26,178 nt of DNA from a virus. Shown in pieces: positions 3,677 to 26,178 of this stretch (position 1 is its first letter; each line of letters opens with the position of its first letter). The stretch covers positions 1 through 26,178 of the IMG/VR virus record IMGVR_UViG_3300030061_002481; one strand, 5' to 3'. The notes beneath the pieces are model-generated. The model had not been told where the DNA came from. It was given only the letters and a program-made list of their open reading frames with translations, and made no database searches. Position numbers and translations under genes: made by a program.

Positions 3677-3976
3677 ATGGGTTTCGATATACAAACTCTT
3701 GAACTCAGCGACATAGAACGTGCACAGAAGCAGAACGTCAAACTAGCAGAGACTCTTGGAACTGGCTCGGTATTCAATACCGACAAACCTCTGGCAGGCA
3801 CTGTCAGCAAGCAGAACAAGAGAGTCGAAGACATAAGCGATATACTCAACATAGGTGCAGGAACACGGTGCAAGCACTGTGGTCTCCTTCACTTCATGTT
3901 CGTGGAGAAGTGCAGTTCATGCAAGAAACCGATGGAGTACAACATGGGCCACAGGAATGAGGAGGCTCGGTGGTAA
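3677..3976 (+). CDS. Small zinc-ribbon protein
   Basis: The product has 99 residues; start ATG 3677 with GGTGAG (3663-3668) upstream. The N-terminal two thirds are charged and probably helical (LELSDIERAQKQNVKLAETL). The C-terminal part has two CxxC knuckles, C65-K-H-C68 and C79-S-S-C82, ten residues apart, the spacing of a rubredoxin-type zinc ribbon that should bind one zinc ion. It ends in a basic/acidic tail (MGHRNEEARW). The stop overlaps the next start (TAATG at 3974-3978), so the two genes are probably translationally coupled. Its role is unknown: zinc ribbons of this size may bind nucleic acid or stabilise a small assembly factor. Being inside the head-neck block favours a head assembly or packaging accessory role. 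Confidence 0.75.
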   Translation: MGFDIQTLELSDIERAQKQNVKLAETLGTGSVFNTDKPLAGTVSKQNKRVEDISDILNIGAGTRCKHCGLLHFMFVEKCSSCKKPMEYNMGHRNEEARW

Positions 3977-8661: not shown

Positions 8662-8671
8662 GGTTTTGAAG

Positions 8672-9355: not shown

Positions 9356-9680
9356 AGAAGAACACAAACATGAGATACAAGTCGATAGGGACGACCCTGA
9401 GGCTATCATGGAAGTGTGGATAAGAGACATAACGTATCTAGATGTACAGAAAGCAGCACAAACGATGTTCGTGGTGAATGAATCTGGCGTTTCTCTTGAT
9501 TTAGAGGCATACTGGTCGTATGCTTTCACTAATTGGGTCGTAGGCACTAACCCGGAACTGACCATAGAAGAAATGAGACAACTCAATGCATATGCTGGTG
9601 AGCAACTGGCATCGCTTCTCCCGAAGCCTGATGAGATGGCGGAGGCTATGCAAGGGGGGTTTACCAAAGCGAGCAACTGA
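9315..9680 (+). CDS. Tail assembly chaperone, short form (lambda gpG equivalent)
   Basis: The product has 121 residues from ATG 9315, overlapping the end of the SAP gene by 41 bases in another frame. It has no family motif I can name. Its size, mostly helical second half (LTIEEMRQLNAYAGEQLASLL), position just after the tube and before the tape measure, and a frameshift site eight codons before its stop all match the G proteins that chaperone the tape measure protein during tail assembly. The zero-frame stop is TGA 9678-9680. Confidence 0.75.
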   Translation: MTKVVNKRKILTNKEEHKHEIQVDRDDPEAIMEVWIRDITYLDVQKAAQTMFVVNESGVSLDLEAYWSYAFTNWVVGTNPELTIEEMRQLNAYAGEQLASLLPKPDEMAEAMQGGFTKASN

Positions 9681-9958
9681 GGGTTGAGAGTTTTCTGAAG
9701 AGACAAGCAATAGAGTCATCAGAAGACATCGAACTCCAACTACAGTTGTTTGCATACAACATAGCAAAACACTACGGGATTTCACTGACAGAGGTATACA
9801 ACATGAGCGAAGAGATATTCAGACAGTCTCTAGTATGGGCCATGGTGTACGACGCAGAGGAAGAGAAACAGGCAGAGGAATCCAGAGTACGTTCTAATAC
9901 CGAAAGTAATGACATAGTAAAACTAGACTACTCCTTCTTGCAGGAGGATGATTTCTAA
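9315..9958 (+). CDS. Tail assembly chaperone, frameshifted long form (lambda gpGT equivalent)
   Basis: This is the predicted product of a -1 ribosomal frameshift: codons 1-115 from ATG 9315 through GGG 9657-9659, then base 9659 is read again and translation continues in the -1 frame to TAA 9956-9958, for about 214 residues. The -1 frame is open from 9635 (after TGA 9632-9634) to 9958 and contains a helical, acidic T-like domain (ESFLKRQAIESSEDIELQLQ, then SEEIFRQSLVWAMVYDAEEE). The T part has no convincing start of its own: the only early candidate, TTG 9746, lacks a ribosome binding site. Long forms recruit tube subunits to the chaperone-coated tape measure in lambda. The next gene starts in a TAATG overlap. 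The frameshift is predicted from sequence layout and precedent, not shown. Confidence 0.75.
9653..9663 (+). promoter_or_regulatory. Programmed -1 frameshift (slippery) site
   Basis: The site reads A-GGG-GGG-TTT-A, with zero-frame codons GGG 9654-9656, GGG 9657-9659, TTT 9660-9662. A tRNA on the second GGG re-pairs perfectly after slipping back one base. It is the only homopolymer run longer than three bases in the interval where a slip would work, between the -1 frame stop (9632-9634) and the zero-frame stop (9678-9680). Runs of six or seven G are among the slippery sequences used in tail chaperone genes. Confidence 0.7.
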
Positions 9959-10827
9959 TGGCTTTCGCACCAATCTTGGCTTCTCTAGCAGCCATCAACT
10001 CCTCAACCACTTTGATTCAAGGTGGTATATCTGCGGTGCAGTCTGGCATAGGTATGATAGGTACGCTTTTCAGTGCAGTATTCAACAAACTAGGACAACT
10101 GGCTGTGAAGATATTCACCAAGATTAAGGATTTCATAAAGGACAAGGTGATACCTGCTCTTGAGCCTTTCATAGGCATAGCGAAGAAGGTGTTCAATGGT
10201 GTGCTGAACATCGCAAAGAAGGTAATAGGTTTCATCGTTGATGGATTCAAGAAGATACCTGAGGTATTCGGCACGATAAAAGAGAAACTCACAAGCGCAA
10301 TAGCAGGTATACCTGAATTGTTCGGCACTCTCAAGGATAAGGTGATAGACAAACTGGTTGCTGTGAAGGACTTCATCTTCGACATCCCATCCAAGATAAG
10401 CGAAGCAATAGGGAAAACGTTCAGTAAAATAGGCAAGTTTGTCAGTGGATTAAAGAGCAAATTAGCAGGTGTTGGTAAGTTCATAGGCGACCAGTTCGCC
10501 AAGGTAGGCGACATAATGCTATGGCCTTTCAAACAGGTCTGGAATATAATCAAGAAAATCAAAGATGCAATCGCTGGTGCTGTTGGTGGTCTGATAGACA
10601 AAGCCAAAGGGCTATTCGGTGGTAAGAAGAAGAAAGAATCCTCTAGTACTCAAATAGGCACTGCTGTGTCTGGTGGGGTCAATCAGTACTTCACAATGAA
10701 CATCAACGTCTCAGGAGTGACAGACCGCTCTGACAAGAGACAACTAGCCAGAGAGTTAGGTGAATTGATGCAAGAGGAAACTGCCAGAGCATTAGGTGGT
10801 ACAACAACTAAGAGTAGGTATGCATAA
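9958..10827 (+). CDS. Tape measure protein, unusually short
   Basis: The product has 289 residues; its start overlaps the previous stop (TAATG, 9956-9960), with AGGAGG (9942-9947) upstream. Tape measure proteins span the tail lumen and set tail length. Evidence: it directly follows the G/GT pair; it is almost wholly helical with regular hydrophobic/Lys spacing (FTKIKDFIKDKVIPALEPF); it has hydrophobic N-terminal segments (AVQSGIGMIGTLFSAVF); and it ends with a beta strand and a helix (YFTMNINVSGV, then RQLARELGELMQEETARAL), a common end for this family. An 18-residue tandem repeat lies at about residues 100-135. Family members are usually 600-2000 residues or more. At about 0.15 nm per residue this one predicts a tail of about 43 nm. 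It has no lytic enzyme domain. The role is fairly sure from context. Confidence 0.75.
   Translation: MAFAPILASLAAINSSTTLIQGGISAVQSGIGMIGTLFSAVFNKLGQLAVKIFTKIKDFIKDKVIPALEPFIGIAKKVFNGVLNIAKKVIGFIVDGFKKIPEVFGTIKEKLTSAIAGIPELFGTLKDKVIDKLVAVKDFIFDIPSKISEAIGKTFSKIGKFVSGLKSKLAGVGKFIGDQFAKVGDIMLWPFKQVWNIIKKIKDAIAGAVGGLIDKAKGLFGGKKKKESSSTQIGTAVSGGVNQYFTMNINVSGVTDRSDKRQLARELGELMQEETARALGGTTTKSRYA
10255..10362 (+). repeat. 54-bp (18-residue) tandem repeat in the tape measure gene
   Basis: Two consecutive 18-residue units begin IPEVFGTIKEKL (base 10255) and IPELFGTLKDKV (base 10309). They are clearly similar in protein but diverged in DNA. Tandem repeats with regular aromatic residues are usual in tape measure proteins and are a way to change tail length. 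Confidence 0.6.
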
Positions 10828-12050
10828 TGGCGGCGGCAAATGGTGTTCCTATCAGGTTGGTTCATGACAATGGGCTGTTGACTGAGATAAACGCCACTAG
10901 CATGACCATGACAACACAGAGAAAGACAGGTGGTATGCCCACTCCTTTCACTGGTGGTATAAGGGTAGGACTTGACCTGAACATGAACAAGTCGATGATA
11001 CTAATCAACGCAGTGCTCACTGATGACAGGAATCTAGTGGGTTCTAGCATTGCTTCCAAATCAAGGATAGATTTCTCTTTCATAGTGCTAGGTGGTCAGA
11101 TACAGAGTTACCTAGACGGTGATGGGGCTACGAACTCCAACATAGCCAAGTTGTTCAACAACACCTATTTCACAGGCTCAGACGAGTTCAGTTTCTCCAC
11201 CATACAGTTGACCTCACATGACGGTACTACCTTCACCATCAAACTCCAGAAACTCTCATCGGGCACATTCACCAATACCACGAACACTGATTACATCATA
11301 GGAATCAACCCGACGGGTTCATTGACACACGCAGGATTAGCCACTGCTTTCGCAGACCTGATAAACAACACATCCAGTTTAGCGGCAAAGTTCACTGCAT
11401 CGAAATCAGACTCAATCACCACAGGTGAATCCAACACCATAGTCACCATAACACAAGACACAGTGGGTGAGGATGGAGACAACCTCACTCCCATATTCTC
11501 ACGGAAACCCAACGGATACAGACCCCCTTCGCATGAGAAGTTCGCAGGTGGACTCACCGTGTCTAAGAGGTCGGCGGGAGACAAGGCGATGGACCTCTAC
11601 GGTATCATGAACAATTCCAAGAAAGAAGGCATTGAGAAGTTCGCTCTAGGGTTAGGTATGGTAGTAGGAGGAACTGCGGCAGCCATGACTGGTGTAGGCG
11701 CTCCTGTTGGTGTCGGTGTGGCAGCAGCAGGTGTGGGAATCTTGGCTGACAGCAAAGCAGGAATAGGCAGCGGCAGCGGATACATCAAGGGCATACAGAT
11801 ACCATACAACTCGACAATACAAGCGGATGGCGATAACTTCGTCGCTCGTAACTTCATCATGCCCACAGGATTCGGCAAATCATTCAATGACAAGAGAAGC
11901 GATAACAACTCCAATCCAGCAGGTGCTACCTTCACAGGCAACACAACAGGAATAAAAGGCACAGTACAAAAAATCGACATCACATACAACGCAGGAGAGA
12001 ACGTCTACGACATTGTGATGAACTTCGTACCTGTGGACTTCTTGTTGTGA
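10827..12050 (+). CDS. Distal tail / baseplate-like protein with Gly/Ala-rich hydrophobic segment
   Basis: The product has 407 residues, starting in a TAATG overlap with the tape measure gene. Position right after the tape measure gene is that of the distal tail (Dit) protein or a tail tip hub component. Residues 1-85 are beta-rich; about 126-227 hold a module with LATAFADLINNTSSL and IVTITQDTVGEDGDN, a pattern common in phage structural proteins and also seen in the adaptor gene (3976-5631). Residues about 274-307 form a long Gly/Ala/Val stretch (LGLGMVVGGTAAAMTG, then VGVAAAGVGILA) that is hydrophobic enough to enter a membrane. The C-terminus is a beta region ending IVMNFVPVDFLL, similar in feel to Dit C-terminal ends (v.i.f.p.). 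No signal peptide. The Dit label is inferred from gene order; the membrane segment is visible. Confidence 0.5.
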   Translation: MAAANGVPIRLVHDNGLLTEINATSMTMTTQRKTGGMPTPFTGGIRVGLDLNMNKSMILINAVLTDDRNLVGSSIASKSRIDFSFIVLGGQIQSYLDGDGATNSNIAKLFNNTYFTGSDEFSFSTIQLTSHDGTTFTIKLQKLSSGTFTNTTNTDYIIGINPTGSLTHAGLATAFADLINNTSSLAAKFTASKSDSITTGESNTIVTITQDTVGEDGDNLTPIFSRKPNGYRPPSHEKFAGGLTVSKRSAGDKAMDLYGIMNNSKKEGIEKFALGLGMVVGGTAAAMTGVGAPVGVGVAAAGVGILADSKAGIGSGSGYIKGIQIPYNSTIQADGDNFVARNFIMPTGFGKSFNDKRSDNNSNPAGATFTGNTTGIKGTVQKIDITYNAGENVYDIVMNFVPVDFLL

Positions 12051-12054
12051 TATC

Positions 12055-15000
12055 ATGCCTATACTCGGACGCTCAAATCACGCTTTCTTGTTTGACGGCG
12101 TGTCAGACAGCATAGTAGTACCACAAGGCACTATGAGTCGTTTGGGAAAGCAGACATCAGATGGCACTAAGTCGAAGGTAAACATACTGGGTGAGAAGCA
12201 ACACATAGAGGGCGAGGGCACACTGTCCGGCATACTGAGTTCTCAGATATGCATAGAGGCTTGGGTCATACCAGACTGCGGTGGTGTGGTAGTAGAGAAG
12301 GAAGACCAGTTCAAGTTATCAATAGGCGAGGTAGATACGCCCGGTCCTGCGACATTCGAGGTGTTCCTCGACACAGATGCAGGACAAGAGCATCATTTCC
12401 TATCAACAGGAACGAAAGTCTCTGGGAGAGGATACGAAGGTGTAGTGTATCCTGCTTCAGATTTCGGCGGTATACACTCGTCTTACAACAAGTACAGCGG
12501 CTCATACGACGACCCAACCACACTCAACACAGACCAGCGACCACTGATGCACATAGTAGCAGCAGTGAGAACCAACTCCATAGAACTCTACATCAATGGC
12601 GAGTTGATGGTGTCCAAGGAGTTGGCGAACAGAACCCTACAGATAGCCAAGGGCAACGCACATGTGTATGTGGGAGGTAAGGGAGGACAATTCAGGGGAG
12701 TAATGGAGTCACTTCACATCTCTGGTTATTTTGACGAGGGTACGATAGAGAGGTCTGCGCCCATAGCCAACGAAAATACGTTGCTGCTTTATAGGTTTGA
12801 AGAGCCAATAGCGCCTGTAGAGGAGGTCTACACCTTCTCCTCGATATCAGACAACGGTACTACAATGGATGGACAGAGCGTTACCATATCCCAGATATCA
12901 CTCAGCACTACCGATGCAGTCAAACTAGCCAAGAAACTCACTGGCTTGGAGACGGTATCGGGCAACTACGTGTTCTCTAAGGACACCACAGGTACTCACA
13001 AGTTCTCAGGTGGGGACTACAAGGTCGTCAACTACCTACAGAACACAGGTACTCCGACCACATACGCTGTCTCTCACACACCATACAACCTGCTCATCAA
13101 TGCCGGTGCTACAGACAGGGATGTATTCAAGCCCAACAACAAGCCCCCAGAAAGAGTCAGGCTTCACAACATCAACACAACGACTGGGAACTGCCTCGTG
13201 TCCAGCGTGCATCTGGACTTCTCCAGTTCGGTCAACGGACTCCGCAAGGCTCTCCATAGCAGAACAGCGGGTGTTGACAACTACTTCGTGGTCGTCGGTG
13301 CTGACCTGTTGATAGACAGCGCCAGTGGTAGACCATACCAACCGCCTCACCATTCCACCCAGATGATAGACAGGACAGGGCAGATGGTTATTGACGAGAG
13401 TCCGTTCGCTCTGCATGGTTTCGTCTACTCGACCAACATGGCCACAGACACCTCAGACAATGCATATGCAGCCACTTGGCCTACTGGGGTAGACACATCC
13501 TTCCAAGTCGGTCACAGTGGAAGACATGCCCTCAACCACGTTGACGGTCATGACTTCCTGAAGTTGATGCCAAGAGCACAGGAGGAGATAATCGACCAAC
13601 AGATAGACGGTTCTGCCGACATCATAGATGTGATGTACGATGTCTCCAAGGGTGGTATCTCCGACCAGATTTCAATCAACAGCAGGGTTGATGTCTACAG
13701 AGACCAAGGCACAGTTCTGATTGACGAGATAGTCAATAAGACAGAGGCGCAAGTCGTGTTCGACAACGGTTTGGTAGAAGCGGAGAAAGAAGTGATTGCA
13801 ATTGGTGGTCCTAGTTTCGACTACCTACCCTTCATGCTGAAAGGGCCTGTTCCTCAAGACCTAGACAATCTGAACGCAGAGACACGCAGGCTTCATCTCA
13901 GGCCCAGTGAGAAGAGCAGGGTAGCAATTCTCAAAGTTCCCGCTCTAACTTCTTACAACCTCGCTCCCTTCGTCAAGGTCCACTACAATGCGATAGACCT
14001 GACTGGGGCTAGCATGAGTGGTGTCGTACAACCCCTGCTGATGGTGGAGAAGACAGTACCTGCTGGTTCTACCATAGTCACCGGCACTACTACTGTCTTC
14101 AGTCTAATCAAAACTGCAATAGAGACAAGCACAATAAGGTCAGAGTTGTTCGCTGCTGGTGGATACATCGACTTCACAGATGTTGATGTTCTCAAGGGGT
14201 CATTAAGGCAGAACCACTCTCTGATAGGTGATGTCAGTGAGGGATATGAGTCAGACGACGAATTGGATGAGAGTCTCACACCAATCAATCACAAACCGAT
14301 GACCCCCACCGGAATCACCGTAGATGGTAACCAAGCCTCTGGTGGTGGTACTACCATCACCACCAACGGCACTAGCAGCGAGAGCAGCAACATAGCAGAG
14401 GGAGATGCCATCTACAACTCCAACCTAGCATTCGTAGGCACAATAGCATCAGGAGGCATAGGGGCTAACCTCACCCTCACGGATAACCGTGCTGCTGCTG
14501 TTACCGATGGAGAGCAGTTGTACATAGGAATAGGCACTAATGCACATCCCAACAAAACCCCACAGATAATCACCGCTTCTCACACTCCCACTACCAAGCA
14601 CGACTCAGTGTTCCACAAGATGGTCATAGAACCCAGCAGGAGCAAGAATGACTCCTTGACAGACAAGGGTCTGTACTTCAGGAGAGAGCCTAGCGAGGTC
14701 ATACAATCACCATCCAACGGAGAGTTCGACAAAGCAGGAACTTCCTCTGGCACACATATATACGAGATGTTCGACATCATCGACAACCAATTCCAAGATG
14801 ACGGTAGCGTCAGGATGTTCATACAACCCTCGGATAGAAGGAGAGTCAACCAACTCTCAGGATTGAGGTCGCAGTCTACCGATTTCAAAGAACCTAACAA
14901 CATCACTATGATGTATCTCATGAGCAGAGCCAGAATCAGAGCGGTGCTAGACTCTGACCAAGGTGGCGAGAGTTTCACCACAGTACGCTGTGTGGGTCTC

Positions 15001-18000
15001 ACAGAGTCAACAGTCAACAGGTCAGTCAATGTGAGAGGCAAGGGAAGTCCAGATTCACAGGTGGTCAAGGAGATAGAGCCTAACGCACCCGTAGTCACAG
15101 TGACCCTCGGTGGTCCGGGTCAGGGTGCTATGGATGTCAAACCCACATACGACCCAAGTCCACTAGCCAGACTCCCGTTCTCCACAAGGAGAAACATGTG
15201 TGCTGTCGGTTATCTAGCAGTATCAGGCTCAGGGGGCGGTCGAATCGCAGTCAAGCCCCTCAATAACAACTCAACAGACCTAGCATCTTGGGGCACATAC
15301 GGATTCCCCAAGGCAGGCAGGGTCTACCTACAAGACGGTGCTAGTGCTAGATATGACAGCAAACTTGCGTCAGAGTTCGTCTTCACTGATGCAGCCAGTG
15401 CAGGAGCGGGCAAGTTCCTTCTAGCCAATGGCACTGAGTTCACAGACTTCTCAAGTTGGCTGTCAGCCACTGACATCTCCAAGGGCATATCGTCGGTGGA
15501 GGACATCAACATCTCAGTGACGCTCTTCGCAGACCGCTTCTTTGATGAGTCATCTCTCGCTGAGGATGGCTCTACCATCAACGACAGGATGTTCCAAGGC
15601 ATGAGCGATGTGCAGCATGACTACCAACTCGGCACTCAATACGCTAGCACAAGGGCGATGGTGGAGATACCCTTCTTCGCAAACCAGTTCTTCGATGACG
15701 TGCGAACCGGCACTTTCCCCGGACCAGACAACTCGTTCAGGATTCACATAGACGCTACACACACTCCGCACACCTACAACCCAAGTCCTGTTGGTAGGAG
15801 ACCGAAGGGTGTCGAACCGGCAGACAGGGAGGCGATGTCAGCCTATGCCCTCAACAAGAAACAGAACAGGTACACACCATCAACCAGAATCACCAAGGTG
15901 AGCAGGACAGGAGGAGGAGGTCAACATCTCATCTACGTAGAGGACATCGGTATGTTCCCTAGAGTGCAGCAGGGACACGATACCGGTAGCCTAGCCTTGC
16001 AGGAGAACTCTGATGACGATGAGTCATACCAGAACTTGGATAACGTTAGGAACTACAGGAAGATGTTCCTAGCCAGTGGAGAGTGGGCTTACTATACCGA
16101 GATAACCGTTAGTGGTCAAGGTGTTCTGAAAGTACCTAGAGGAGATGATGCAGCGAACTGGGCCTACTCTTCAGGATTCCTCGATGAGGCTGTTGTTGGT
16201 GCTTCAATAACTACTGGTGGACCTTCGCTTCCACTGGAGGGCATAGTCCCCATAGGCTCTGATGCATTTACACCATCCTCGGACTTCGAGAACAGGTCGG
16301 AGTACTACCACGACTCAGCCAGCGTCAAGACTCAGGGAGGCAACGTGGACTACGGGTTGCGGCAGTACGTCAGCGCAGTGGAGTTCAAGGAAGGTCCTGA
16401 GTCCAACCCACACGCACCTAGGATAGTCTCAGGCAGGGCTGTCGGTAATGTAGTCACTGCCGCACACAAGAATCTATCAGGAGGGAATGGCTCTTTCATC
16501 AATCAAGTCCTAGTCACCATGTCTGACGAGGACATGGACCTCTTCCCTGACTTGGACTACGAGGACATGAGCACGTACTCCTTCTCCTCAGGTGAGTTCC
16601 TCTACGAAGCAGAGACCATACTAAGCGACGGCACTGTTCAGAAATTGCATTACTACGGAAGACTCACCAAGAACAGCATCAGTGACACCATAGCACCCAA
16701 TGTCTTGGTGTTCGTATATAGAGCAGCATCATCATCCACACCTTCTTGGGTTACAAATCTACCCGGCAAGGAGTTGAAACTCATTAGAAGGGTGAGGGAT
16801 ATCTTCGGTGCTGTTGACGGGGATGACGGCAACAACGCAGCCTTGAAGGAGGCCAACAACGAGAACATAGCCAAGACTTACAAGCCCACTGGTGATGATG
16901 CTTGGACAATCATAGCGGCAACAAACAGTGCAACCGTTACAATTGAAAATAGTAATGGAAGACTCGCTGGTGCTAACACCCTAGGTCTCAATCTAAGAAA
17001 GGGAGACCTACTCTACTCAGAGGCTAGTGCTTCCAAGATTCTATTCATAGGAACTGTCTCAACCATAGAGGACTACGATAATGGAGACTATTCTGTGACA
17101 CTTACAGACCTCGCTGCAAATGCTGCGGCAGATGCTGACAACGTACCACTCAGACTTTCCATAGCCAATGCATACGAGGAAGACCCCGATGCTGTTCTCA
17201 ACAAGTCTTGGAACTACCCATACGCTGCTGGTGGACTGAGGAGCGGTGATACGATATGGGCCAACATGACAATCAACAACCCCTATGCGACAGAGGGATT
17301 GTTCTCCAAGAGCAGAGGTGTGTTCAATGAGGCTCAGGTATGGAAGGGCTTCAACGGTGGTGTGGCTAGTCTCGCTGCATCCAGACCTAGGGAGAGTGTG
17401 CCATTGGAGAACTTCCTCATCGGTGATACCTGCCTTGAGACAGCGATAAACTACGCACAGCACGTCAATCAGACAGTCAAGGAGAACTACAAATCACTAG
17501 GACTTGATGAGGCAGATGCACCCAAGGTGGCTTACGTTGACCCCTATCTGGCTGACGATGGGCATGCTAGGGTGCTTCTCTATGACGTTGCTCATGACAA
17601 GGAGTTCATCGCCTTCCAAGACCTGCACATGCAAGTCCAGACGAGCGCAGAGGCAGTCACTATCGGCAGACCGAGGAACATGGTGGTAGGTAGTGGTACA
17701 GCACCAGTGGACTTGGCTGAGTACACAGCCACATTCAACGGTGGTGGGCCTTCATGGATAACCACCCAGATTGACGTAGCCAACGGTTTCCCAAGTGAGA
17801 ACAGGTACATCCGCTCGACACAGCAGTCCAAGTTCATAGAGAGCGCATACTCACATGACCTAGCGAACAGGATAGGCACTAACGTGCTGACAGCAGTCAA
17901 CGGTACTCTACCGTCCAGCCTACCCGCTAGTGCAGCCACATCCTCATCGCCGGGGATATATGGCAAGGCACACGGCCATCACGTGCACACTGGGTACAGC

Positions 18001-21000
18001 ATATTCGGTGAGGCCAACAAGTACTCAATGGGGGACAGCGTTCTACCGAGGACGAGCGACTCTACGGTCAACCCATTCACAGCGAGCAGCGACCATGCCT
18101 TCTCAAGGACAAAGAGGTCATTGACCGAGGCATTCACAGCGGCACTGGTCAAACTCAGAAGAGATACATCCACGAACACTTTCCCCACTACCCTAAGAGA
18201 CCCATCGACCTTCTTCGATACACCAGATGGCACTCGTGTCATACCAGCCTTCCTGTGCCTCAAGGGGATAAGAGACACACCGCTAGACCTCACAGGGCAT
18301 GAGGAGAGCAGGCTACAGCATCTGAAGCAATGGACGGACATGGATTTCCTGAGAAGACTCTCGATAGACTGTGGTGCTGTAGCAGGTAAATCCGGTGTGG
18401 TATCCATAGAGTCAGCAACTCAGGAGATTGTCAGGCAAATCAACCAATCAGGCGCACCCAAGGGACAAATCGTAGTTGACAAAGACACTACTGGTAGTGC
18501 CCATGACCCCGCTCCCTTTTGGGATACAGACAAGGCGTTCTCCTCTCGTGACAGAGGAACGCACATGGGATACGTCAGAGCACACATGGGCAGGGAGGTG
18601 CAGGACAAGAACGGCAACAGGGGATTCACCGTGGTCATACACAGCACCGTTCCGGGTGCTAGTGGTAGGAACTTCTGCGTCTGGCTCGACAACAGCAAGG
18701 GACAGAGCGTCTACCAACCAGACTTCCTCATAGGGCATGGTGGTAGATGGCGTGACTTCTGGGCATTGCCTGAGGAGAAGGAGGGTGAGAACATGCATCC
18801 CGCACCCATGCCACTCAACAAGCACGGCAGACCGTTCGCACCAATCACCACTCTCACTCAGTACGTCAACCCGGAAGAGACAGGAGAAGAGGTAATCAGC
18901 ACGACTGACTTCACTGATTCCGACGATGACAGCAGCCCTGTCATCAGGGCGATATCGAATGCGTTAGGTGGAGGCCAGCAGTTCAACACGGTCAACACCG
19001 AGTCATTCTCCACGATAGGCTCATCGTCCACCATCATACAGGGACTCAGAGTCGGCAAGAACTCCTTCGGTAGAGTCAATTTCGGTGGACTGGTAGCCAG
19101 TGGTGTACCCGGCTTCTCACCAATAGCAGGACCTTGGGGCTTCGGCAAGAAAGGCTCTCAAGACTTCAGAGACACATATGGACAAACCACAGAGGCCGTT
19201 TCCTACACAAATCACACGGATGCTAACCAACTGAAATCCGACACGCTAGGAGACTCACCGATATACGGTCTCAAACTGACAGACCACAGGGGAGGCAATC
19301 ATGGTATACGCTACATCTACAGGGGTGCAGGACTAGGTTTTGCAAACGACAACACTGCCCTACCCGATACCATCTCCAATGAGGTCTGTGTCTTCTTCGA
19401 TGACAGGGACACAACGCAGGGCGGCTTCACCATAGGCAAGCACATGCGTGGCACTGGTGATGCCACTGGTAGGATGAACACCGACAATGCCAGCACAATG
19501 ACACAGAAGAAATGGACAGGCAACAGATGGAGAGGGGTGTCTGCACCAAACATAGCAGTGGACTGCGAAATAAGCAGAAGCGGCACTACTCTCACAGTAG
19601 ACCTACAAGCACCTTTCGACAACAATAGTGGACTCGCACATCACGATGTGCTAGGATACCTCGGCTTCCCAGTCACGAACGGCATGCTACAGGTGACAGA
19701 CGCTGGAGGCGGCAACGAAGCCATGACCTACTCCTACACGAGAAGGACGCAGAACGCCAAGGACGGCACTCACAAGTTCTTTGGTATCGCTGGTGATGAG
19801 GCAGACCACACGTATGACAGTGGGAAATACCTCATCAGCCCTACCCTCAATTGGACTACACTCGTCACTGATGAGTTGATGGCTGCCGTCACGACTGCTG
19901 CAATCAACGCCACTGCAAGCCAGTTGACTGAGGGAGTGAACTTCGACTGCACCGAGATGTACGCCACCAACGGCAAGACGTTCGGTGACATGGGTGTGTT
20001 GCCTGATGCCATCACCATACGAGCATTCGACCCCACCAAGAACATCACACCGATATCAGACCTCTTCAGCGCATCGTTGCACAACGACTTCGGGATGCAA
20101 GCAGCGCATGTCGAGTTCGGTGAGGTGGAGAAGACACAACTGCAAAACACAGGCTGGTCCTTCGGCACATCCAGAGCGACTAGAGACGCAGACATAGAAA
20201 TCAACAGAAGAATAGCCTGCGGGTACATACCCAAGACCGTTCTTCAGATAGCCACCAGAAGCAGAGGACCTAACGGCAACACAGCCACACCAGTATTGGT
20301 TGACTCCCTGAACAACCCCGTTGACATCAGCGATTGGAGGAAGAACCTGAAGGGTGAGAGTTTCACACGCCACAGCGGAGACCACATCCTACCAATGATA
20401 AACAACCCGACAGCGGTGTTCGCACATGCCTCTTCCGCAAACAGCGATTGGGCAGAGGGAGGCACTCAGAACCTCACACTAGACCACGAGATGTGGAACT
20501 TTCTCATACCGGCAGGGCAGGAGGGTTCTGGCAGCAAAATACCGTCATTCGGTGAGACCAAGACCATCTTCATGAACGACAAGAAGTCTGTCACTGTGGA
20601 GAGTCTCAATGGTGGGACTAGCACGACCAAGTTCGTCTGGTCAAACGCATCAGAGGACTGGCCCGCCGCTGAGGTCAGTGACATCTTAGCCTTCTCGCAC
20701 TGGGCCACTCTGGATGTGACCAAGCACTTCGATGGACTGCGCTCGCTAGGCAGCGTGTTCTCCGAGCCATTCGTGTTCTTCAGAGGAGGGAAGAGCAGCA
20801 CCGACCACAGCGTGCCCCTGTTCTTCGGCGGTGGATTCAGCGGTGTGACTCTCGATATCAACGACGGTACGAAGAACGACTACTCCTCATTCTACACACA
20901 CCCGTATGCGAATGGCCCTACAGGGACTACAGGCATACAGAACGCCAACGAGATATCCACCAGTTTCGCCCTGCTTGACGGCAATGCCATGTTCGCCTTC

Positions 21001-24000
21001 TTCCCCGGTGCTGCTTTATGTAATCAACACAGGGGAAGCATACTACCACCGATGTTCAACAGGGACAACATACTGTCGCCCGACCTGAACAGAGGCACAG
21101 GCACAATCAACAGCAGCCATCCCAACTCCACTCCCTACACCAACAACTCAGGCACTGATGTAACAGTGCAGAAACCCAGCCCATTGATACTCAGGTTCGC
21201 ACACCCCACTGCCAGATACGAGGACCACAAGGACACGAGCGTGGAGAACAAGACGACTTACATCATCTTCGGGCCGGGTCAGGCCTTCCCGTTCGCACAG
21301 GAGGTGGCAGACAACGCCGGTAGTTACAACATCAAGCAGCCTCATCCGGGCAGGGTCATAGTGAACGGCAACGGACACAGCAAAGTACCCAAGGCTACCA
21401 ACACGAGAAGATTCCCGAACCACATAGAGAGTGATGGTGTGCTAGCCAACGGTACGTTCGGTGAGGGCTACTTCATGCCTGAGGCCTCTGCCTACCAATT
21501 GGCCAGAGGCAGATTCCACTGGAGAACGACCCTCAACTGGGAGACACCACAAGGCAAACCGAACCTAGCGATACTCAAGCAGTCACAGGCATCAGGCAGG
21601 ATGTACGGCAATCACTTCAACTACAGGACAGCGACATCCGGCATAGATGACGACTTGAAGAAGGCCCATCCAATGAGGCACTCCCCAGTGATTGGTCACG
21701 GTGTAGCCATGGCAGCAGACATGGTGTATCACATGGATGGTGGATACCACCCCGGTGGTCATTGGATGGACAACCAAATCACATTCAACCCACCACATCC
21801 CAAGGGTGAAACCATACTACAGAGATGGGGCAGTGGTTCATCAGATACCACATTGCATCCAAGCGCATACAGGGTGGCAGGACCAATCACCACCAAGGTA
21901 CTGGCATACAGCGAAGTCGTTGCCTCTAGCGAGGTGGACATGGAGTACATCATCGTGGATGCGACAAGATGCCAGAACGGTGAGGAACTAGCCACAGTGG
22001 TAGGGTCAGCCATCAATGCCTTCCCCGGTGCTGGTGCACTCAAGGCCATGGGTGGCACACACATGCCATCAATGAGCAACGCAATGCGACAGGATAGGTA
22101 CGGGTGGGTGGAGAAGACCTTCTCTGCAATAGTCAACTCAGACAGTGACCCTGATAATAATCACATCACAGTGACCGGAGGCACGCAGGATGAGTTGGAG
22201 AGGCTACCTGCATGCGGCTGGCTCAGGACAGACGCTTCAGGTTTCGCTCCCTACTATGCCAGAGAGGTACACAACGACGGTGCTTGGAAGGCCAAGTTCT
22301 ACCTCGCACCGAACAGAATAAGTGGACAAATGAAGTTTGAGGACCAGACCACTTGGTATGATACAACTGGCGATAAAGATACATTCCCCACAGTCAACTC
22401 AGGGAGTATTTGGATATGGTCGAAAGCAGGAGTTCACAGATTCAACAACGAGAACGACACTGGTCGTGACCACATGTGTCAGACTCACTTCTCAGGTCTG
22501 GTCGATGCCATAGACAGGACAAGACCGATAGGTGCGGTTGGTTGGGCAGGAGAGAGATACTCCTACCTCAACAGCCTGAAGGTGGGCACACAGGGATACG
22601 CTGCCGGGTTGGGTGCTTGGCATCCGATGCTAGGTTTCTCTCCGTATGGCAGCGCATCCTCGGCAATCACTGCATTAGGTCATCTACCCGTTGTTGGTGC
22701 TATGGTGCACAGCCCTGAAGCATCACCACCAATAGACGGGATGGGTGCTAACGGGGCGAACCTGATGACGTACCTAGGTGACCCATACAACGCTTCCACT
22801 GGATTCAGGGTGAACGCTGACAATCAGGCTACTTACAATATAGGACACGATGCCTTCGTTGCACCTCACACCATACACACCAAGCCCCCCACATACATCG
22901 ACACCACCCTACCGGACTTCATGACACACCCACAGGGAGTGTTCGGCAGGGCATTCATAGTGGTGAGTTACGAGTGCGAGAGCGCTCTCGTAGCCAAGTA
23001 CGACAGGGACGGTATCACAGGTCTAGGTGATTGGCTGCAAGTCAAGGGCGCTGCTGCAAACGGCACAAGCAACCCCATCCACTATGCTGGTACTACGAGG
23101 TGGGATGAGCGATTCCACGGTCAAGACCGATTCATAGCACCAGCGAACGCAGGTCCTAACGTAGAGGCGATGGTGCATACCACACCCACTGTGAAGACCG
23201 TCAGCGACTACACGACGGACCACATACTGGACACGACCTTCGATGCGGAGTACTTCCTGCACGGTACTGCTAACAACTCCACTCTTGAGAACGCCATACC
23301 CAGCCTGCACAAGACAGGAGACCTGATATTCGACCTAGACCACTCGGTAGGCTCTTTCTTCCTTGAAGAGAGTGATGAGGTAGAGAGGAACGTCGCAGCC
23401 GACCTATACACTGGTGAGGACTTCACTCAATTGTACGATTCGGGCGGAACGCCATCCCATGACGACTTTTGGGTCGGTGATGTGAATGCGTACGACCTGT
23501 ACAAGAGGTCAGCAGCGAAGAACTTCTCGATAGAACACATAGTGTGGAAGAGGATGGATGGTGGCAACCTCTCTCTACCAGCGGTCAATGCACGTGGTCT
23601 GGGTGCTGTGCCCTTCGTGAACAGAGTGAGTGGTAACAACGCCTACACCATGGGTGAGAAGATATTCGGCAACGTGAGATTCACGTTCGAGACTACCAAC
23701 AGCGCCATGCTACCGGTGCTACAGGCACAGGAGTTGAATCACCCCCAACTCGCATCCAAGTTCCCACTCAACATACAGAACGTCTTGGAGATACCCAACG
23801 AGGAGATGCAGTTCGGTGAGATGACCGTCACTGACGACTCAGGACAAGAGCACGTCCTTGAGGGCGGTAGTCCTCTGGGTACAATCATACGTGGCTTCAG
23901 GAAGGTCACGGACAGACAAACGAAGGGCATGTCCCCTGCTCTCGCCAACAGCGACGTTGCACCCAACCTCAAGATACAGTTGCCTGACCCCAACTCCATA

Positions 24001-26178
24001 CCCGGCAACATCGTGGTGAGGTCAGGGTTCGACAGGTTACAGGCGTACCAGAACGAGACCATGGGTTCTGGTGGCATGATACACCCAGACCTCAACGAGA
24101 ACTACATAGGAAACCTATTCGACAACTCGGTGTCCAACCCACGCACAGGTCCTACATACGAGGACCACAACTGGGAGCACATCGACGTGCTGACCAAGGA
24201 CAGCACCAATGCTGGTTGGAAGGAAGCGACCAACAGCGCACCTCTGCAAACCAGTTATGAGCAGCATGACAGGACACTGTACTTCCATGTGACTAAGATG
24301 GGACACAGCAGCACCGAGAGATATCCCACAGAGTACACTCATGCAGGAGGTGTGGTAAGTCAAAGCCTCACAGTCAGTGGTTTCAGCGGTACTACACTCA
24401 CCGTATCATCTACCGTGGACTCCTCGATATACGACGCTGGGTTCGGAACTAAGGAGGTAAGCGACGACAGACGCTTCCTACGCCTTGCTACTAGCACTGA
24501 CTCAGTGGTGGTCTCCTACACAAGAATCAGCGGAATCACGTTTGAAGGGGTGGTGGGAGATGTGGATTTCACCGCCTTCCTAGCAGCGAACCCACCAGCC
24601 TCAACTACAATCAACATCTCACCGTCATACTACATTCCAGCCGGTAGCAACCGCTTCTTCGCATCAAGGAGGCTACGTGACCACGCAGAGGTAAGCGGCA
24701 ACTCACCGGACATGGCGAAGACGGAATACTCCTCAGGAACATACGGTACTGTCAATGCCAACACCCTAGCATACAACATCTACAACAAGCAGGTACTGAC
24801 ACCAATGCCGCTACCACGCATGGGTCATCACTTCGTCACACCGACGATGCCGATGCTCCCCGGCCACTGGGCACATCCTGTTTACCAGAGCCTATTCACG
24901 AAACACATGGCAGAAAACGCATCACTGCGAGGCTTTGCTGACAAGAACATACTGGCTGATAGCGTGACTGCCACTAGCGTGATGGGTGACTTGGCATCAA
25001 CCGTGACAGACCAGTTCAACGTGCACGACCCTGAGTTGGCATTCAGTGGTGTAAACGCTGCTCCATCGCTGCCCAGCGATATCCATGGAGGTGCGTTTAC
25101 GCTTATGTTCGAGACGGGTATCAAATATGATGGTTACGGCATTCTAGCATCCACAGGCGACGCAGGTACGGTGAACAAGGCAGGTGGACACACCATAGTG
25201 CTGGAATCCGCATACTACTACACTCTGGGCAAGAACTTCCCAGACCCCGCTGAGGTAGGTGCGTACCAGATTGTGATACAACCCAACACGTTCTCCACGC
25301 AGTTGGTAGGATTCCACACAGACGTAGGTGCTTCCACCCAATCCCTGACTAGCCAGCAGGTACATACAGTGATAGGCAGGAAAGCCGCAAACAACGCCCT
25401 AGGCACGGTTTCCCTGATTCTAGCACAGGCTACGCAGGCTGATGTCAGAGGCTGTGAGATATTCATCAATGAGGCAATGATAGACATCAACCCAGACCAC
25501 GGCAGCCAATTCACCAACATACCACCCTTGCTATTGTACAATCAATTCGGCGTAGAGGGCACGGAGTCACCCGTTTTCACACGTAGAGCACTACCGTACA
25601 CACCGGGCCAGTTCAGGAATGCCACGCCCGGATACACAGTCAGCACACCTTGGTGGTCGTTCATCCACAAGGTCGCTCCAGACGACAGTTCCTCTGACAA
25701 CTTCAAACATATAGCGCTTCATCGCCCAGATAACTACTACCATATGAAGAGAAGTACCTTTGGAAGTATAGGAGTACAATTAACAATTGCAGGATACCCT
25801 TCAATATATCCAAATATATATTCACATATATTACAAAATACATCTCTAAATCCAAAATGTATAGTAAAAAGTATTCAAAGTGCAGCAAATGGATATAGAA
25901 CAATCACTGTAGATGATGCAAGTAGATTCCCAGAGACTCCACAATATGGAGAAGTACTGGAATATACCGATTCTAATGGTATTAGACAGACATTAGCATA
26001 CACAAGACGCTCAGGATTGCAATTAAACGCAATTAACAAACCAGATAAACTACAGTCAAACGTCCTTTCTGGACCATTTTGGGACAATCTAACAGTAGGT
26101 ACAGTCATTAGATTATCACAACCATATGACATATACAGTTCCAAGAATGTATTTACAGATACTAATAGTAGTATATTT
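12055..26178 (+). CDS. Giant tail / adhesion protein, at least 4,708 residues, N-terminal LamG lectin domain (3' end outside window)
   Basis: One frame runs from ATG 12055 (4 bases after the previous stop) to the last base without any stop; I read every triplet. At about 110 Da per residue this is at least 0.5 MDa. Residues about 8-226 fit a LamG/concanavalin-like jelly roll: HAFLFDGVSDSIVVPQG, then SSQICIEAWVIPDCGGVVVEK, then MHIVAAVRTNSIELYINGEL, then GVMESLHISGYF, so a glycan-binding role is likely. The rest is mostly beta-rich, Gly/Ser/Thr/Asn/Asp-rich, low in Lys, with few Cys. Recurrent segments occur near residues 753-825 and 1618-1702 (GD(A/L)(I/L)Y......(F)(V/I)GT) and 2502-2564, 4102-4159 and 4601-4653 (strand, TVDD or TVSS, Tyr-Thr-Arg). 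His-rich patches are at 1973-1978 and 3205-3236. No protease, hydrolase, kinase or polymerase motif was seen. Position after the distal-tail gene suggests the tail hub/fibre system that recognises the host. The last ~440 bases are abruptly AT-rich. Confidence 0.85.
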   Translation, partial: MPILGRSNHAFLFDGVSDSIVVPQGTMSRLGKQTSDGTKSKVNILGEKQHIEGEGTLSGILSSQICIEAWVIPDCGGVVVEKEDQFKLSIGEVDTPGPATFEVFLDTDAGQEHHFLSTGTKVSGRGYEGVVYPASDFGGIHSSYNKYSGSYDDPTTLNTDQRPLMHIVAAVRTNSIELYINGELMVSKELANRTLQIAKGNAHVYVGGKGGQFRGVMESLHISGYFDEGTIERSAPIANENTLLLYRFEEPIAPVEEVYTFSSISDNGTTMDGQSVTISQISLSTTDAVKLAKKLTGLETVSGNYVFSKDTTGTHKFSGGDYKVVNYLQNTGTPTTYAVSHTPYNLLINAGATDRDVFKPNNKPPERVRLHNINTTTGNCLVSSVHLDFSSSVNGLRKALHSRTAGVDNYFVVVGADLLIDSASGRPYQPPHHSTQMIDRTGQMVIDESPFALHGFVYSTNMATDTSDNAYAATWPTGVDTSFQVGHSGRHALNHVDGHDFLKLMPRAQEEIIDQQIDGSADIIDVMYDVSKGGISDQISINSRVDVYRDQGTVLIDEIVNKTEAQVVFDNGLVEAEKEVIAIGGPSFDYLPFMLKGPVPQDLDNLNAETRRLHLRPSEKSRVAILKVPALTSYNLAPFVKVHYNAIDLTGASMSGVVQPLLMVEKTVPAGSTIVTGTTTVFSLIKTAIETSTIRSELFAAGGYIDFTDVDVLKGSLRQNHSLIGDVSEGYESDDELDESLTPINHKPMTPTGITVDGNQASGGGTTITTNGTSSESSNIAEGDAIYNSNLAFVGTIASGGIGANLTLTDNRAAAVTDGEQLYIGIGTNAHPNKTPQIITASHTPTTKHDSVFHKMVIEPSRSKNDSLTDKGLYFRREPSEVIQSPSNGEFDKAGTSSGTHIYEMFDIIDNQFQDDGSVRMFIQPSDRRRVNQLSGLRSQSTDFKEPNNITMMYLMSRARIRAVLDSDQGGESFTTVRCVGLTESTVNRSVNVRGKGSPDSQVVKEIEPNAPVVTVTLGGPGQGAMDVKPTYDPSPLARLPFSTRRNMCAVGYLAVSGSGGGRIAVKPLNNNSTDLASWGTYGFPKAGRVYLQDGASARYDSKLASEFVFTDAASAGAGKFLLANGTEFTDFSSWLSATDISKGISSVEDINISVTLFADRFFDESSLAEDGSTINDRMFQGMSDVQHDYQLGTQYASTRAMVEIPFFANQFFDDVRTGTFPGPDNSFRIHIDATHTPHTYNPSPVGRRPKGVEPADREAMSAYALNKKQNRYTPSTRITKVSRTGGGGQHLIYVEDIGMFPRVQQGHDTGSLALQENSDDDESYQNLDNVRNYRKMFLASGEWAYYTEITVSGQGVLKVPRGDDAANWAYSSGFLDEAVVGASITTGGPSLPLEGIVPIGSDAFTPSSDFENRSEYYHDSASVKTQGGNVDYGLRQYVSAVEFKEGPESNPHAPRIVSGRAVGNVVTAAHKNLSGGNGSFINQVLVTMSDEDMDLFPDLDYEDMSTYSFSSGEFLYEAETILSDGTVQKLHYYGRLTKNSISDTIAPNVLVFVYRAASSSTPSWVTNLPGKELKLIRRVRDIFGAVDGDDGNNAALKEANNENIAKTYKPTGDDAWTIIAATNSATVTIENSNGRLAGANTLGLNLRKGDLLYSEASASKILFIGTVSTIEDYDNGDYSVTLTDLAANAAADADNVPLRLSIANAYEEDPDAVLNKSWNYPYAAGGLRSGDTIWANMTINNPYATEGLFSKSRGVFNEAQVWKGFNGGVASLAASRPRESVPLENFLIGDTCLETAINYAQHVNQTVKENYKSLGLDEADAPKVAYVDPYLADDGHARVLLYDVAHDKEFIAFQDLHMQVQTSAEAVTIGRPRNMVVGSGTAPVDLAEYTATFNGGGPSWITTQIDVANGFPSENRYIRSTQQSKFIESAYSHDLANRIGTNVLTAVNGTLPSSLPASAATSSSPGIYGKAHGHHVHTGYSIFGEANKYSMGDSVLPRTSDSTVNPFTASSDHAFSRTKRSLTEAFTAALVKLRRDTSTNTFPTTLRDPSTFFDTPDGTRVIPAFLCLKGIRDTPLDLTGHEESRLQHLKQWTDMDFLRRLSIDCGAVAGKSGVVSIESATQEIVRQINQSGAPKGQIVVDKDTTGSAHDPAPFWDTDKAFSSRDRGTHMGYVRAHMGREVQDKNGNRGFTVVIHSTVPGASGRNFCVWLDNSKGQSVYQPDFLIGHGGRWRDFWALPEEKEGENMHPAPMPLNKHGRPFAPITTLTQYVNPEETGEEVISTTDFTDSDDDSSPVIRAISNALGGGQQFNTVNTESFSTIGSSSTIIQGLRVGKNSFGRVNFGGLVASGVPGFSPIAGPWGFGKKGSQDFRDTYGQTTEAVSYTNHTDANQLKSDTLGDSPIYGLKLTDHRGGNHGIRYIYRGAGLGFANDNTALPDTISNEVCVFFDDRDTTQGGFTIGKHMRGTGDATGRMNTDNASTMTQKKWTGNRWRGVSAPNIAVDCEISRSGTTLTVDLQAPFDNNSGLAHHDVLGYLGFPVTNGMLQVTDAGGGNEAMTYSYTRRTQNAKDGTHKFFGIAGDEADHTYDSGKYLISPTLNWTTLVTDELMAAVTTAAINATASQLTEGVNFDCTEMYATNGKTFGDMGVLPDAITIRAFDPTKNITPISDLFSASLHNDFGMQAAHVEFGEVEKTQLQNTGWSFGTSRATRDADIEINRRIACGYIPKTVLQIATRSRGPNGNTATPVLVDSLNNPVDISDWRKNLKGESFTRHSGDHILPMINNPTAVFAHASSANSDWAEGGTQNLTLDHEMWNFLIPAGQEGSGSKIPSFGETKTIFMNDKKSVTVESLNGGTSTTKFVWSNASEDWPAAEVSDILAFSHWATLDVTKHFDGLRSLGSVFSEPFVFFRGGKSSTDHSVPLFFGGGFSGVTLDINDGTKNDYSSFYTHPYANGPTGTTGIQNANEISTSFALLDGNAMFAFFPGAALCNQHRGSILPPMFNRDNILSPDLNRGTGTINSSHPNSTPYTNNSGTDVTVQKPSPLILRFAHPTARYEDHKDTSVENKTTYIIFGPGQAFPFAQEVADNAGSYNIKQPHPGRVIVNGNGHSKVPKATNTRRFPNHIESDGVLANGTFGEGYFMPEASAYQLARGRFHWRTTLNWETPQGKPNLAILKQSQASGRMYGNHFNYRTATSGIDDDLKKAHPMRHSPVIGHGVAMAADMVYHMDGGYHPGGHWMDNQITFNPPHPKGETILQRWGSGSSDTTLHPSAYRVAGPITTKVLAYSEVVASSEVDMEYIIVDATRCQNGEELATVVGSAINAFPGAGALKAMGGTHMPSMSNAMRQDRYGWVEKTFSAIVNSDSDPDNNHITVTGGTQDELERLPACGWLRTDASGFAPYYAREVHNDGAWKAKFYLAPNRISGQMKFEDQTTWYDTTGDKDTFPTVNSGSIWIWSKAGVHRFNNENDTGRDHMCQTHFSGLVDAIDRTRPIGAVGWAGERYSYLNSLKVGTQGYAAGLGAWHPMLGFSPYGSASSAITALGHLPVVGAMVHSPEASPPIDGMGANGANLMTYLGDPYNASTGFRVNADNQATYNIGHDAFVAPHTIHTKPPTYIDTTLPDFMTHPQGVFGRAFIVVSYECESALVAKYDRDGITGLGDWLQVKGAAANGTSNPIHYAGTTRWDERFHGQDRFIAPANAGPNVEAMVHTTPTVKTVSDYTTDHILDTTFDAEYFLHGTANNSTLENAIPSLHKTGDLIFDLDHSVGSFFLEESDEVERNVAADLYTGEDFTQLYDSGGTPSHDDFWVGDVNAYDLYKRSAAKNFSIEHIVWKRMDGGNLSLPAVNARGLGAVPFVNRVSGNNAYTMGEKIFGNVRFTFETTNSAMLPVLQAQELNHPQLASKFPLNIQNVLEIPNEEMQFGEMTVTDDSGQEHVLEGGSPLGTIIRGFRKVTDRQTKGMSPALANSDVAPNLKIQLPDPNSIPGNIVVRSGFDRLQAYQNETMGSGGMIHPDLNENYIGNLFDNSVSNPRTGPTYEDHNWEHIDVLTKDSTNAGWKEATNSAPLQTSYEQHDRTLYFHVTKMGHSSTERYPTEYTHAGGVVSQSLTVSGFSGTTLTVSSTVDSSIYDAGFGTKEVSDDRRFLRLATSTDSVVVSYTRISGITFEGVVGDVDFTAFLAANPPASTTINISPSYYIPAGSNRFFASRRLRDHAEVSGNSPDMAKTEYSSGTYGTVNANTLAYNIYNKQVLTPMPLPRMGHHFVTPTMPMLPGHWAHPVYQSLFTKHMAENASLRGFADKNILADSVTATSVMGDLASTVTDQFNVHDPELAFSGVNAAPSLPSDIHGGAFTLMFETGIKYDGYGILASTGDAGTVNKAGGHTIVLESAYYYTLGKNFPDPAEVGAYQIVIQPNTFSTQLVGFHTDVGASTQSLTSQQVHTVIGRKAANNALGTVSLILAQATQADVRGCEIFINEAMIDINPDHGSQFTNIPPLLLYNQFGVEGTESPVFTRRALPYTPGQFRNATPGYTVSTPWWSFIHKVAPDDSSSDNFKHIALHRPDNYYHMKRSTFGSIGVQLTIAGYPSIYPNIYSHILQNTSLNPKCIVKSIQSAANGYRTITVDDASRFPETPQYGEVLEYTDSNGIRQTLAYTRRSGLQLNAINKPDKLQSNVLSGPFWDNLTVGTVIRLSQPYDIYSSKNVFTDTNSSIF
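25741..26178 (+). other. Abrupt AT-rich segment inside the giant tail gene
   Basis: From about 25,741 the codons change to TAT, ATA, AAT, TTA, ACA and AAA, while the frame stays open. By hand count the line 25,801-25,860 has 12 G/C of 60 and the line 25,501-25,560 has 30 of 60. The protein remains of the same kind (ITVDDASRFPETPQYGEVLE). This looks like a recombination boundary or a domain of other origin. Confidence 0.6.

What the first reader, a model, noticed from the sequence alone, without database searches (positions are those of the whole stretch)
12055..26178. A single reading frame of at least 4,708 codons encodes a giant lectin-headed tail protein
The frame opened by ATG 12055 has no stop to the window end; it covers 54% of the window. 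Typical tail hubs and fibres have about 500-2,000 residues. The N-terminus is a LamG-like lectin domain, and the rest is long, beta-rich and repetitive in style, with no enzyme motif I can recognise. Giant phage proteins with enzymes (polyvalent proteins) are known, but this one looks purely structural or adhesive and sits right after the tail-tip gene. A short tape measure combined with a giant adhesin suggests a virion dominated by its adsorption apparatus.
Basis: partly seen in the sequence, partly recalled or inferred. Interest (0 to 1): 0.9.

Follow-up and report, generated by a model that had tools for sequence, protein, structure and literature searches.

The report
Giant tail protein of ocean archaeal viruses
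A viral gene that runs off the end of this DNA piece encodes one giant protein of about 5,500 building blocks, whose relatives are found whole in many viruses that probably infect ocean archaea; it most likely forms the tip of the virus tail, a single-chain part of a size rarely seen in viruses and not yet studied as far as could be seen here.

Summary
The frame at 12055 is open for 4,708 codons to the window's end, and the window is the whole 26,178-bp IMG/VR record. Relatives supply the missing end: 30 of 31 loci fetched for this carry one uninterrupted frame of 5,303-5,832 codons (about 605 kDa). It is collinear down to about 41% identity, with a shared C-terminal signature and purifying selection along its length. 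All 15 further records chosen only for a related capsid gene and enough downstream sequence match it. The records fit magroviruses (tailed viruses of Poseidoniales): DNA polymerase B and chaperonin occur together in 16 of 21 records, and the closest named capsid proteins are those of archaeal viruses. The N-terminal LamG lectin fold is confirmed; the rest has no named relative. "Repetitive" is not supported. "Adhesin" is only partly supported: variation is concentrated in discrete patches and inserted modules on a conserved core, and separate, faster-changing fibre-like genes lie downstream. Best reading: a single-chain tail-tip/baseplate scaffold onto which small beta modules and lectin domains are plugged. 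Copy number, location and function are inferred. The family is already deposited without a name (UniProt A0A1B1IU10); no passage I saw describes it, but key magrovirus papers were not readable.

The parts
12055..26178 (+). Giant tail-module gene, first 4,708 codons of about 5,570; cut by the end of the record
12073..12804 (+). N-terminal LamG/concanavalin-like lectin domain (about residues 7-250)
   Evidence: Pfam Laminin_G_3 E=0.0029 in the window protein, below its cut-off; 11 of 17 members at E up to 0.1; AF2 model and fold matches
12826..14304 (+). Second beta-rich, mostly well-modelled region (about residues 258-750)
   Evidence: AF2 pLDDT mostly 65-94 with a weak stretch at 418-439; no separate fold assignment
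14281..14538 (+). Lineage-specific inserted module (about residues 743-828; approximate), 83-85 residues in L014, L016 and L104 and 8-15 in the other loci compared
   Evidence: pLDDT under 50 at residues 758-800
16576..16875 (+). One of the hypervariable patches (L014 residues about 1500-1600; approximate)
17476..18987 (+). Highly conserved block used as profile A1 to find relatives
19249..20376 (+). Better-modelled part of the second AF2 piece (residues about 2399-2774); no known fold matched
22042..22338 (+). Hypervariable patch (L014 residues about 3320-3420; approximate)
10827..12050 (+). 407-aa gene directly upstream, position of a distal-tail/tail-tip protein; conserved partner, present as two paralogues in a divergent clade
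   Evidence: no named relative
9958..10827 (+). 289-aa protein at the tape-measure position
   Evidence: weak matches to PHROGs, 14 of 21 named tape measure, best of these E 1e-9; helical by eye
9315..9680 (+). 121-aa gene followed by a roughly 92-codon -1 frame behind GGGGGGT: tail assembly chaperone layout
   Evidence: a joined chaperone is annotated in HVTV-1
1129..2274 (+). Major capsid protein, archaeal tailed-virus type
2..1126 (+). Prohead protease (5' end cut)
   Evidence: Pfam Peptidase_S78

Best explanation
It is a virion structural protein of magrovirus-type tailed archaeal viruses, most likely the main scaffold of the tail tip (a single-chain baseplate). Shown: one uninterrupted frame of about 5,300-5,830 codons, next to the tape-measure-position gene and a conserved tail-tip-position gene, followed directly by a gene of about 475 aa, one of about 114-126 aa and long fibre-like genes; a conserved core with discrete inserted modules; an N-terminal LamG lectin. 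Inferred: several copies (perhaps 3 or 6, about 1.8-3.6 MDa) assemble at the end of a short tail around the upstream 407-aa protein, carry the downstream fibre proteins, and display lectin and other small beta modules that contact host surface glycans before DNA release.
For: Same gene order in the relatives, with a 4-nt gap upstream in the window and an ATGA overlap downstream in G001. Matched in 15 of 15 further capsid-bearing records with enough downstream sequence (12, 3). 30 complete frames with a coefficient of variation in length of about 2%; 4,652 alignment columns filled in at least 90% of 31 loci; 670 invariant columns among 24 representatives under 85% identical. In three of five pairs its identity is close to that of the two small downstream neighbours (G001/G006: 90, 92, 100%; G001/G012: 68, 64, 81%; G035/G038: 71, 68, 81%). 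The later fibre-like genes fall to 74% and 48% with partial cover (G001/G006), or to 57% and 34% over 23% and 38% (G001/G012). Of 10 inserts picked from 40, five match PHROG families, four of them including ones named virion structural, baseplate or tail fibre, which fits a virion protein. LamG fold at the N-terminus. No strongly hydrophobic 19-residue stretch in three members checked.
Against: No virion proteome or micrograph ties the protein to a particle. No homology to known baseplate or hub proteins: profile comparison with 23 halovirus and methanogen-virus structural-module proteins gave at most 3.2% probability, and no phage record matched at E 0.01. The second AF2 piece is poor. In two of five pairs the giant is clearly less conserved than its small downstream neighbours (G035/G037: 87% against 97 and 96%; G016/G018: 87% against 99 and 100%), and the first fibre-like gene is about as conserved as the giant in G001/G006 (89%) though not in G001/G012 (52%); the upstream gene is less conserved than the giant in G001/G012 and G035/G038 (49% and 50%). 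A LamG at the N-terminus is unlike classical hubs, which start with the hub domain (recalled).
Confidence: 0.53

Rival explanations
1. Giant receptor-binding adhesin: a long fibre whose main task is to reach and grip the host.
For: LamG lectin at the N-terminus; a second LamG-like insert near the C-terminus in L018 (Pfam) and a similar one in L122; hypervariable patches between close relatives; the giant is less conserved than its small downstream neighbours in two of five pairs; a Laminin G note follows the tail genes in HCTV-5.
Against: Conservation spread over the whole length, separate fibre-like genes downstream that match worse or only in part in all five pairs, no repeat architecture.
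Confidence: 0.27
2. Polyprotein cut by a viral protease into several smaller virion proteins.
For: The size itself; a prohead protease is encoded upstream; poorly conserved stretches between conserved blocks.
Against: No cleavage signal was seen, though none was searched for. Prohead proteases act inside the head (recalled), and this gene lies in the tail module.
Confidence: 0.08
3. Tape measure or ejected inner protein that occupies the tail lumen.
For: Tape measures can reach this size (P23-45, 5,002 residues; abstract of PMC10770324 seen). Lengths of the giant and of the tape-measure-position gene are weakly correlated (Spearman 0.41, P 0.048 in 24 records, uncorrected for kinship).
Against: A separate tape-measure-position gene exists. 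It varies from 189 to 445 aa while the giant varies by about 2%. Residues 1-1122 are beta-rich with little helix.
Confidence: 0.05
4. Not a virion part: a protein made during infection, displayed or secreted by the infected archaeon.
For: No direct virion evidence yet.
Against: Position inside the tail operon, no strongly hydrophobic stretch in three members, inserted modules of virion-protein type.
Confidence: 0.04

Closest known systems
UniProt A0A1B1IU10 (fragments in BFVD, no name in the tables at hand)
   Same: 50% and 58% identical over the two pieces modelled here; evidently a member of this family
   Different: No name or function attached; its record and virus were not identified here
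LamG / pentraxin lectin domains (Laminin_G_3)
   Same: Fold of the first ~250 residues
   Different: Under 5% of the protein; the rest has no detected relation to it, apart from LamG inserts in some members
Druskaviridae tail module (HVTV-1, HCTV-5, HCTV-1)
   Same: Capsid protein 32-35% identical; similar order of capsid, chaperone, tape measure and tip genes; HCTV-5 gene 136, after the tail genes, is noted as Laminin G
   Different: No giant gene in the stretches shown; no detectable homology of the proteins compared
P23-45 tape measure protein (5,002 residues)
   Same: Giant single-chain tail protein
   Different: Defines tail length and is fused to an RNA polymerase (abstract of PMC10770324); here a separate short tape-measure-position gene exists
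Giant bacterial adhesins such as SiiE
   Same: Size (595 kDa, abstract of PMC6272769 seen) and a possible binding role
   Different: SiiE is built of 53 repeated Ig-like domains (abstract of PMC5466336); this protein has no detectable repeat array

Membership tests
Magrovirales / magroviruses | Family B DNA polymerase | tested here: met
   16 of 21 relatives; the five misses are contigs of 43-70 kb; the window fragment itself carries only part of the structural module
Magrovirales / magroviruses | Chaperonin and HMG-CoA lyase-like gene | tested here: met
   Cpn60 in the same 16 of 21 records; in G006 an archaeal group II chaperonin and an HMGL-like gene; HMGL looked for in G006 only
Magrovirales / magroviruses | Capsid protein close to Druskaviridae | tested here: met
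   11 phage-collection records match at 23-35% identity: 8 haloarchaeal-virus records and 3 of viruses assigned to methanogens
Magrovirales / magroviruses | Direct comparison with classified species | not testable with these tools
   Reference records ON649702, PP497040 and OR863078 are not held
LamG lectin domain | Jelly-roll LamG fold | tested here: met
   Z about 12-16 to LamG/pentraxin chains, mostly 150-200 residues aligned; window protein below the Pfam cut-off
Tape measure protein | Largely helical, sole tape-measure gene, length set by tail | tested here: not met
   Separate gene at that position, and a beta-rich N-terminal fifth; the remaining four fifths were not shown to be non-helical
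Tail hub (Tal/gp27-like) | Hub domain homologous to known hubs | tested here: inconclusive
   No match seen, but only two pieces were modelled and one poorly
Repeat-built giant adhesin | Tandem repeated domains | tested here: not met
Baseplate/tail-tip protein | Presence in the virion at the tail end | not testable with these tools
   Needs particles; only gene order and inserted modules support it

The most novel reading that the evidence does not exclude
These viruses have condensed the whole tail-tip machine, which other tailed viruses build from many proteins, into one roughly 600-kDa chain that works as a universal chassis: a fixed core with dozens of sites where small lectin and beta modules are swapped between lineages.
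Probability: 0.35. Interest if true: 0.78.

Novelty: new variant of a known kind. Interest (0 to 1): 0.62.

Why it matters
[quoted passage not shown] A gene of about 16.7 kb, roughly 15% of a 110-kb genome, matched in all 15 records tested without bias towards it, must be costly and is probably important. It gives a named target for virion proteomics and cryo-EM, a marker for this virus group, and a case of a giant viral protein kept nearly constant in length while small modules are exchanged. It also suggests that LamG 'auxiliary metabolic genes' reported in magroviruses (PMC10160649) may in part be virion lectin domains.

Tried and rejected
Assembly or frame artefact: rejected, many records carry the same frame; the two internally broken copies seen, G009 and G033, break at runs of ten N. 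Repeat protein: rejected. Enzyme/polyvalent protein: no Pfam or NCBIfam enzyme family; hidden domains in unmodelled parts cannot be excluded. Host provirus: the first genome-contig scan found no relative; the second found three contigs of 4-15 kb in MAGs labelled Maricaulis and Cytophagaceae, which I read as viral contigs binned with bacteria; for one of them I only listed the large frames. Homology to haloarchaeal tail proteins: none (an earlier run of this test gave nothing because of a format option). Solved structures by sequence: nothing for the first half and one row at E 0.51 for the second; nothing convincing for the 407-aa protein. No tRNA or Rfam family in the window. The fold list for the N-terminus also shows PAPP-A, sialidases and clostridial toxin binding domains; I read these as the shared jelly-roll fold only.

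Results against my reading: tape-measure-position length and giant length are weakly correlated, and in two of five pairs the giant is less conserved than its small downstream neighbours. In one search, records whose ORF at that position proved to be a paralogue of the 407-aa gene (L013, L080-L082, L085, L090, L099) were left out, and other rows without a complete giant in hand or repeating a record were not used; one search holds 24 records, some of them close relatives. Two of the 10 inserts were also searched in the phage collection, without a match. In one search the pair window/L014 contains artificial zeros beyond the window's end, and the low at 761 is a gap artefact. In one search I had overlooked one suitable record (L162); it and two with 23-26 kb downstream were added.

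Papers: passages of PMC10160649, PMC5628999, PMC7318539, PMC5332604, PMC4981710, PMC5474096 and PMC8651126; also sections 15 and 16 of PMC10160649; whole text as held of PMC13108676, PMC10768690 and PMC12999244; other papers only as search listings or starts of abstracts. None of what I saw describes this giant protein. Philosof 2017 and Prabhu 2025 are not held; Zhou 2023 was not looked up. So 'not in print' is not claimed.

Full report
Observation. The frame opened at 12055 has 4,708 codons without a stop and ends with the window. The window is the entire record, a 26,178-bp IMG/VR contig. First-order Markov resamplings gave at most 286 stop-free codons in 100 trials. The stop was found in relatives. 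A search with the 407-aa neighbour gave 12 loci. The first 800 residues of the giant matched in 11 of 11 records then examined; in one, G009, the match is in three pieces in short frames, and the breaks lie at runs of ten N. A profile of the conserved block then gave 201 encoding stretches in viral contigs, of which the best 80 were returned; a C-terminal profile gave 359, again 80 returned. In 32 of 32 records from the first list the profile matched without stops; one of these, G033, has a shorter frame (3,703) that starts at a run of ten N. From long contigs I fetched 31 loci. Thirty hold the complete frame, 5,303-5,832 codons; one is open at its contig end. The family is collinear, with a lowest pairwise identity of 0.41 and a median of 0.50. 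All 30 complete frames carry an LHxKG motif in the last 40 residues, mostly within LHPKGHKGDV..SDHSGDA-like endings. The full-length relative L014 weighs 605 kDa.

Not a sampling effect of searching for the giant itself: starting from the capsid protein (506 encoding stretches, 80 returned), I chose those of the 80 not yet examined with at least about 23 kb downstream of the capsid gene. All 15 of 15 match the giant profile: 12 of 12, 3 of 3. In one search the open frames are 5,236-6,332 codons (counted from stop to stop); they are 5,601, 4,991 and 3,288, the latter two in records with less sequence downstream.

Who carries it. The capsid protein is closest to Druskaviridae haloviruses (up to 35% identity) and to viruses assigned to methanogens. 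Of 21 records tested, 16 carry family B polymerase and the same 16 carry a chaperonin; the five without are contigs of 43-70 kb. In G006, whose giant is about 93-94% identical to the window's (over the first 800 residues), the chaperonin is closest to archaeal group II chaperonins and the same region holds an ERCC4 nuclease and an HMGL-like gene. This agrees with the described magrovirus gene set (PMC10768690 whole text; PMC5332604 passages; PMC10160649 sections). The host Poseidoniales is inferred from that set; classified reference genomes were not held.

Anatomy. Residues 1 to about 250 form a LamG lectin: Laminin_G_3 in 11 of 17 members at E up to 0.1, and an AF2 model of residues 1-1122 (mean pLDDT 73.5, pTM 0.74) matches LamG and pentraxin domains at Z about 12-16. 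The rest of that model is beta-rich but was barely tested by the fold lists. A second piece, residues 1695-2842, was modelled poorly (pLDDT 52) and matched nothing at Z of 5 or more. Neither half convincingly matches a solved structure by sequence (one row at E 0.51). Comparison of 27 overlapping profile pieces with each other, 325 pairs, gave at best 42% probability over about 60 residues. So this looks like a long chain of mostly different domains, not a repeat protein.

Core and modules. 4,652 columns are filled in at least 90% of 31 loci, and 670 are invariant among 24 representatives. Against this, 36 regions vary in length, several holding 80-250-residue inserts in single lineages. Close relatives that are 83-88% identical overall can fall to 15-35% in such patches. 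Ten of 40 listed inserts were scanned: five match PHROG families at E up to 0.001, four of them including families labelled virion structural, baseplate, tail fibre or head closure, the fifth only a family of unknown function; the only Pfam match is a second LamG.

Neighbours and mechanism. The order is capsid, tail genes, a tail assembly chaperone-like pair with a -1 frame behind GGGGGGT (seen in the window), a tape-measure-position protein, a protein of about 370-480 aa, the giant, then a gene of about 475 aa, one of about 114-126 aa and long fibre-like genes; in one divergent clade the upstream protein is larger and present as two paralogues. The tape-measure-position gene ranges from 189 to 445 aa in 24 records while the giant varies by about 2%; the two are weakly correlated (Spearman 0.41, P 0.048, not corrected for kinship). 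I take this as evidence that the giant is not the ruler, not as proof. In G001 versus G006 the giant and the two small downstream proteins are 90, 92 and 100% identical; the first fibre-like gene is 89%, the next ones 74% and 48% with partial cover. G001 versus G012 gives 68, 64 and 81%, then 52, 57 and 34% (the last two over 23% and 38%). G035 versus G038 gives 71, 68 and 81%, then 60% over 27%. In G035/G037 (87% against 97 and 96%) and in G016/G018 (87%, against 99 and 100%) the giant is less conserved than those neighbours, but there too the later genes match worse or only in part. I conclude that the fastest host-range change is probably carried by the downstream genes and by the patches on the giant, and that the giant is most likely the tail-tip scaffold that holds them and also displays lectin modules. 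Virion membership, copy number and glycan binding are inferences.

Known or new. A member is already in UniProt without a name in the tables at hand (A0A1B1IU10), and magrovirus genomes have been published since 2017. One survey counts Laminin_G_3 among auxiliary metabolic genes, in four magrovirus groups (PMC10160649 section 16); my inference is that some of these may be the LamG domain of this protein. I found no text describing the giant in the papers seen, but central papers were not readable. I therefore rate it a new variant of a known kind: an exceptionally large, length-conserved tail-module protein without described relatives.

Noticed in passing
window 9315-9960: The 121-aa gene ends shortly after GGGGGGT, and a roughly 92-codon -1 frame without a nearby start continues to about 9958: the usual programmed-frameshift layout of tail assembly chaperones.
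   Followed up: partly
L013 8030-12601; L080 432-4961: In a divergent clade the 407-aa upstream gene is present as two paralogues (about 850 and 656 aa), the larger one with a LamG-like stretch by eye.
   Followed up: partly
L138, L139 (Maricaulis MAG), L140 (Cytophagaceae MAG): Contigs in bacterial MAGs encode this protein family, probably viral contigs binned wrongly.
   Followed up: no
giant protein, whole length: Among 670 invariant columns 29 are His and 18 Trp but only 1 Cys, a high His content that might indicate metal sites.
   Followed up: no
window 8639-9355: A SAP-domain protein (Pfam SAP E 2e-11), usually a DNA-binding motif (recalled), sits inside the tail module.
   Followed up: no
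window 10827-12050 and 3970-5631: By eye these upstream proteins also contain small beta modules of the kind inserted in the giant; not tested.
   Followed up: no
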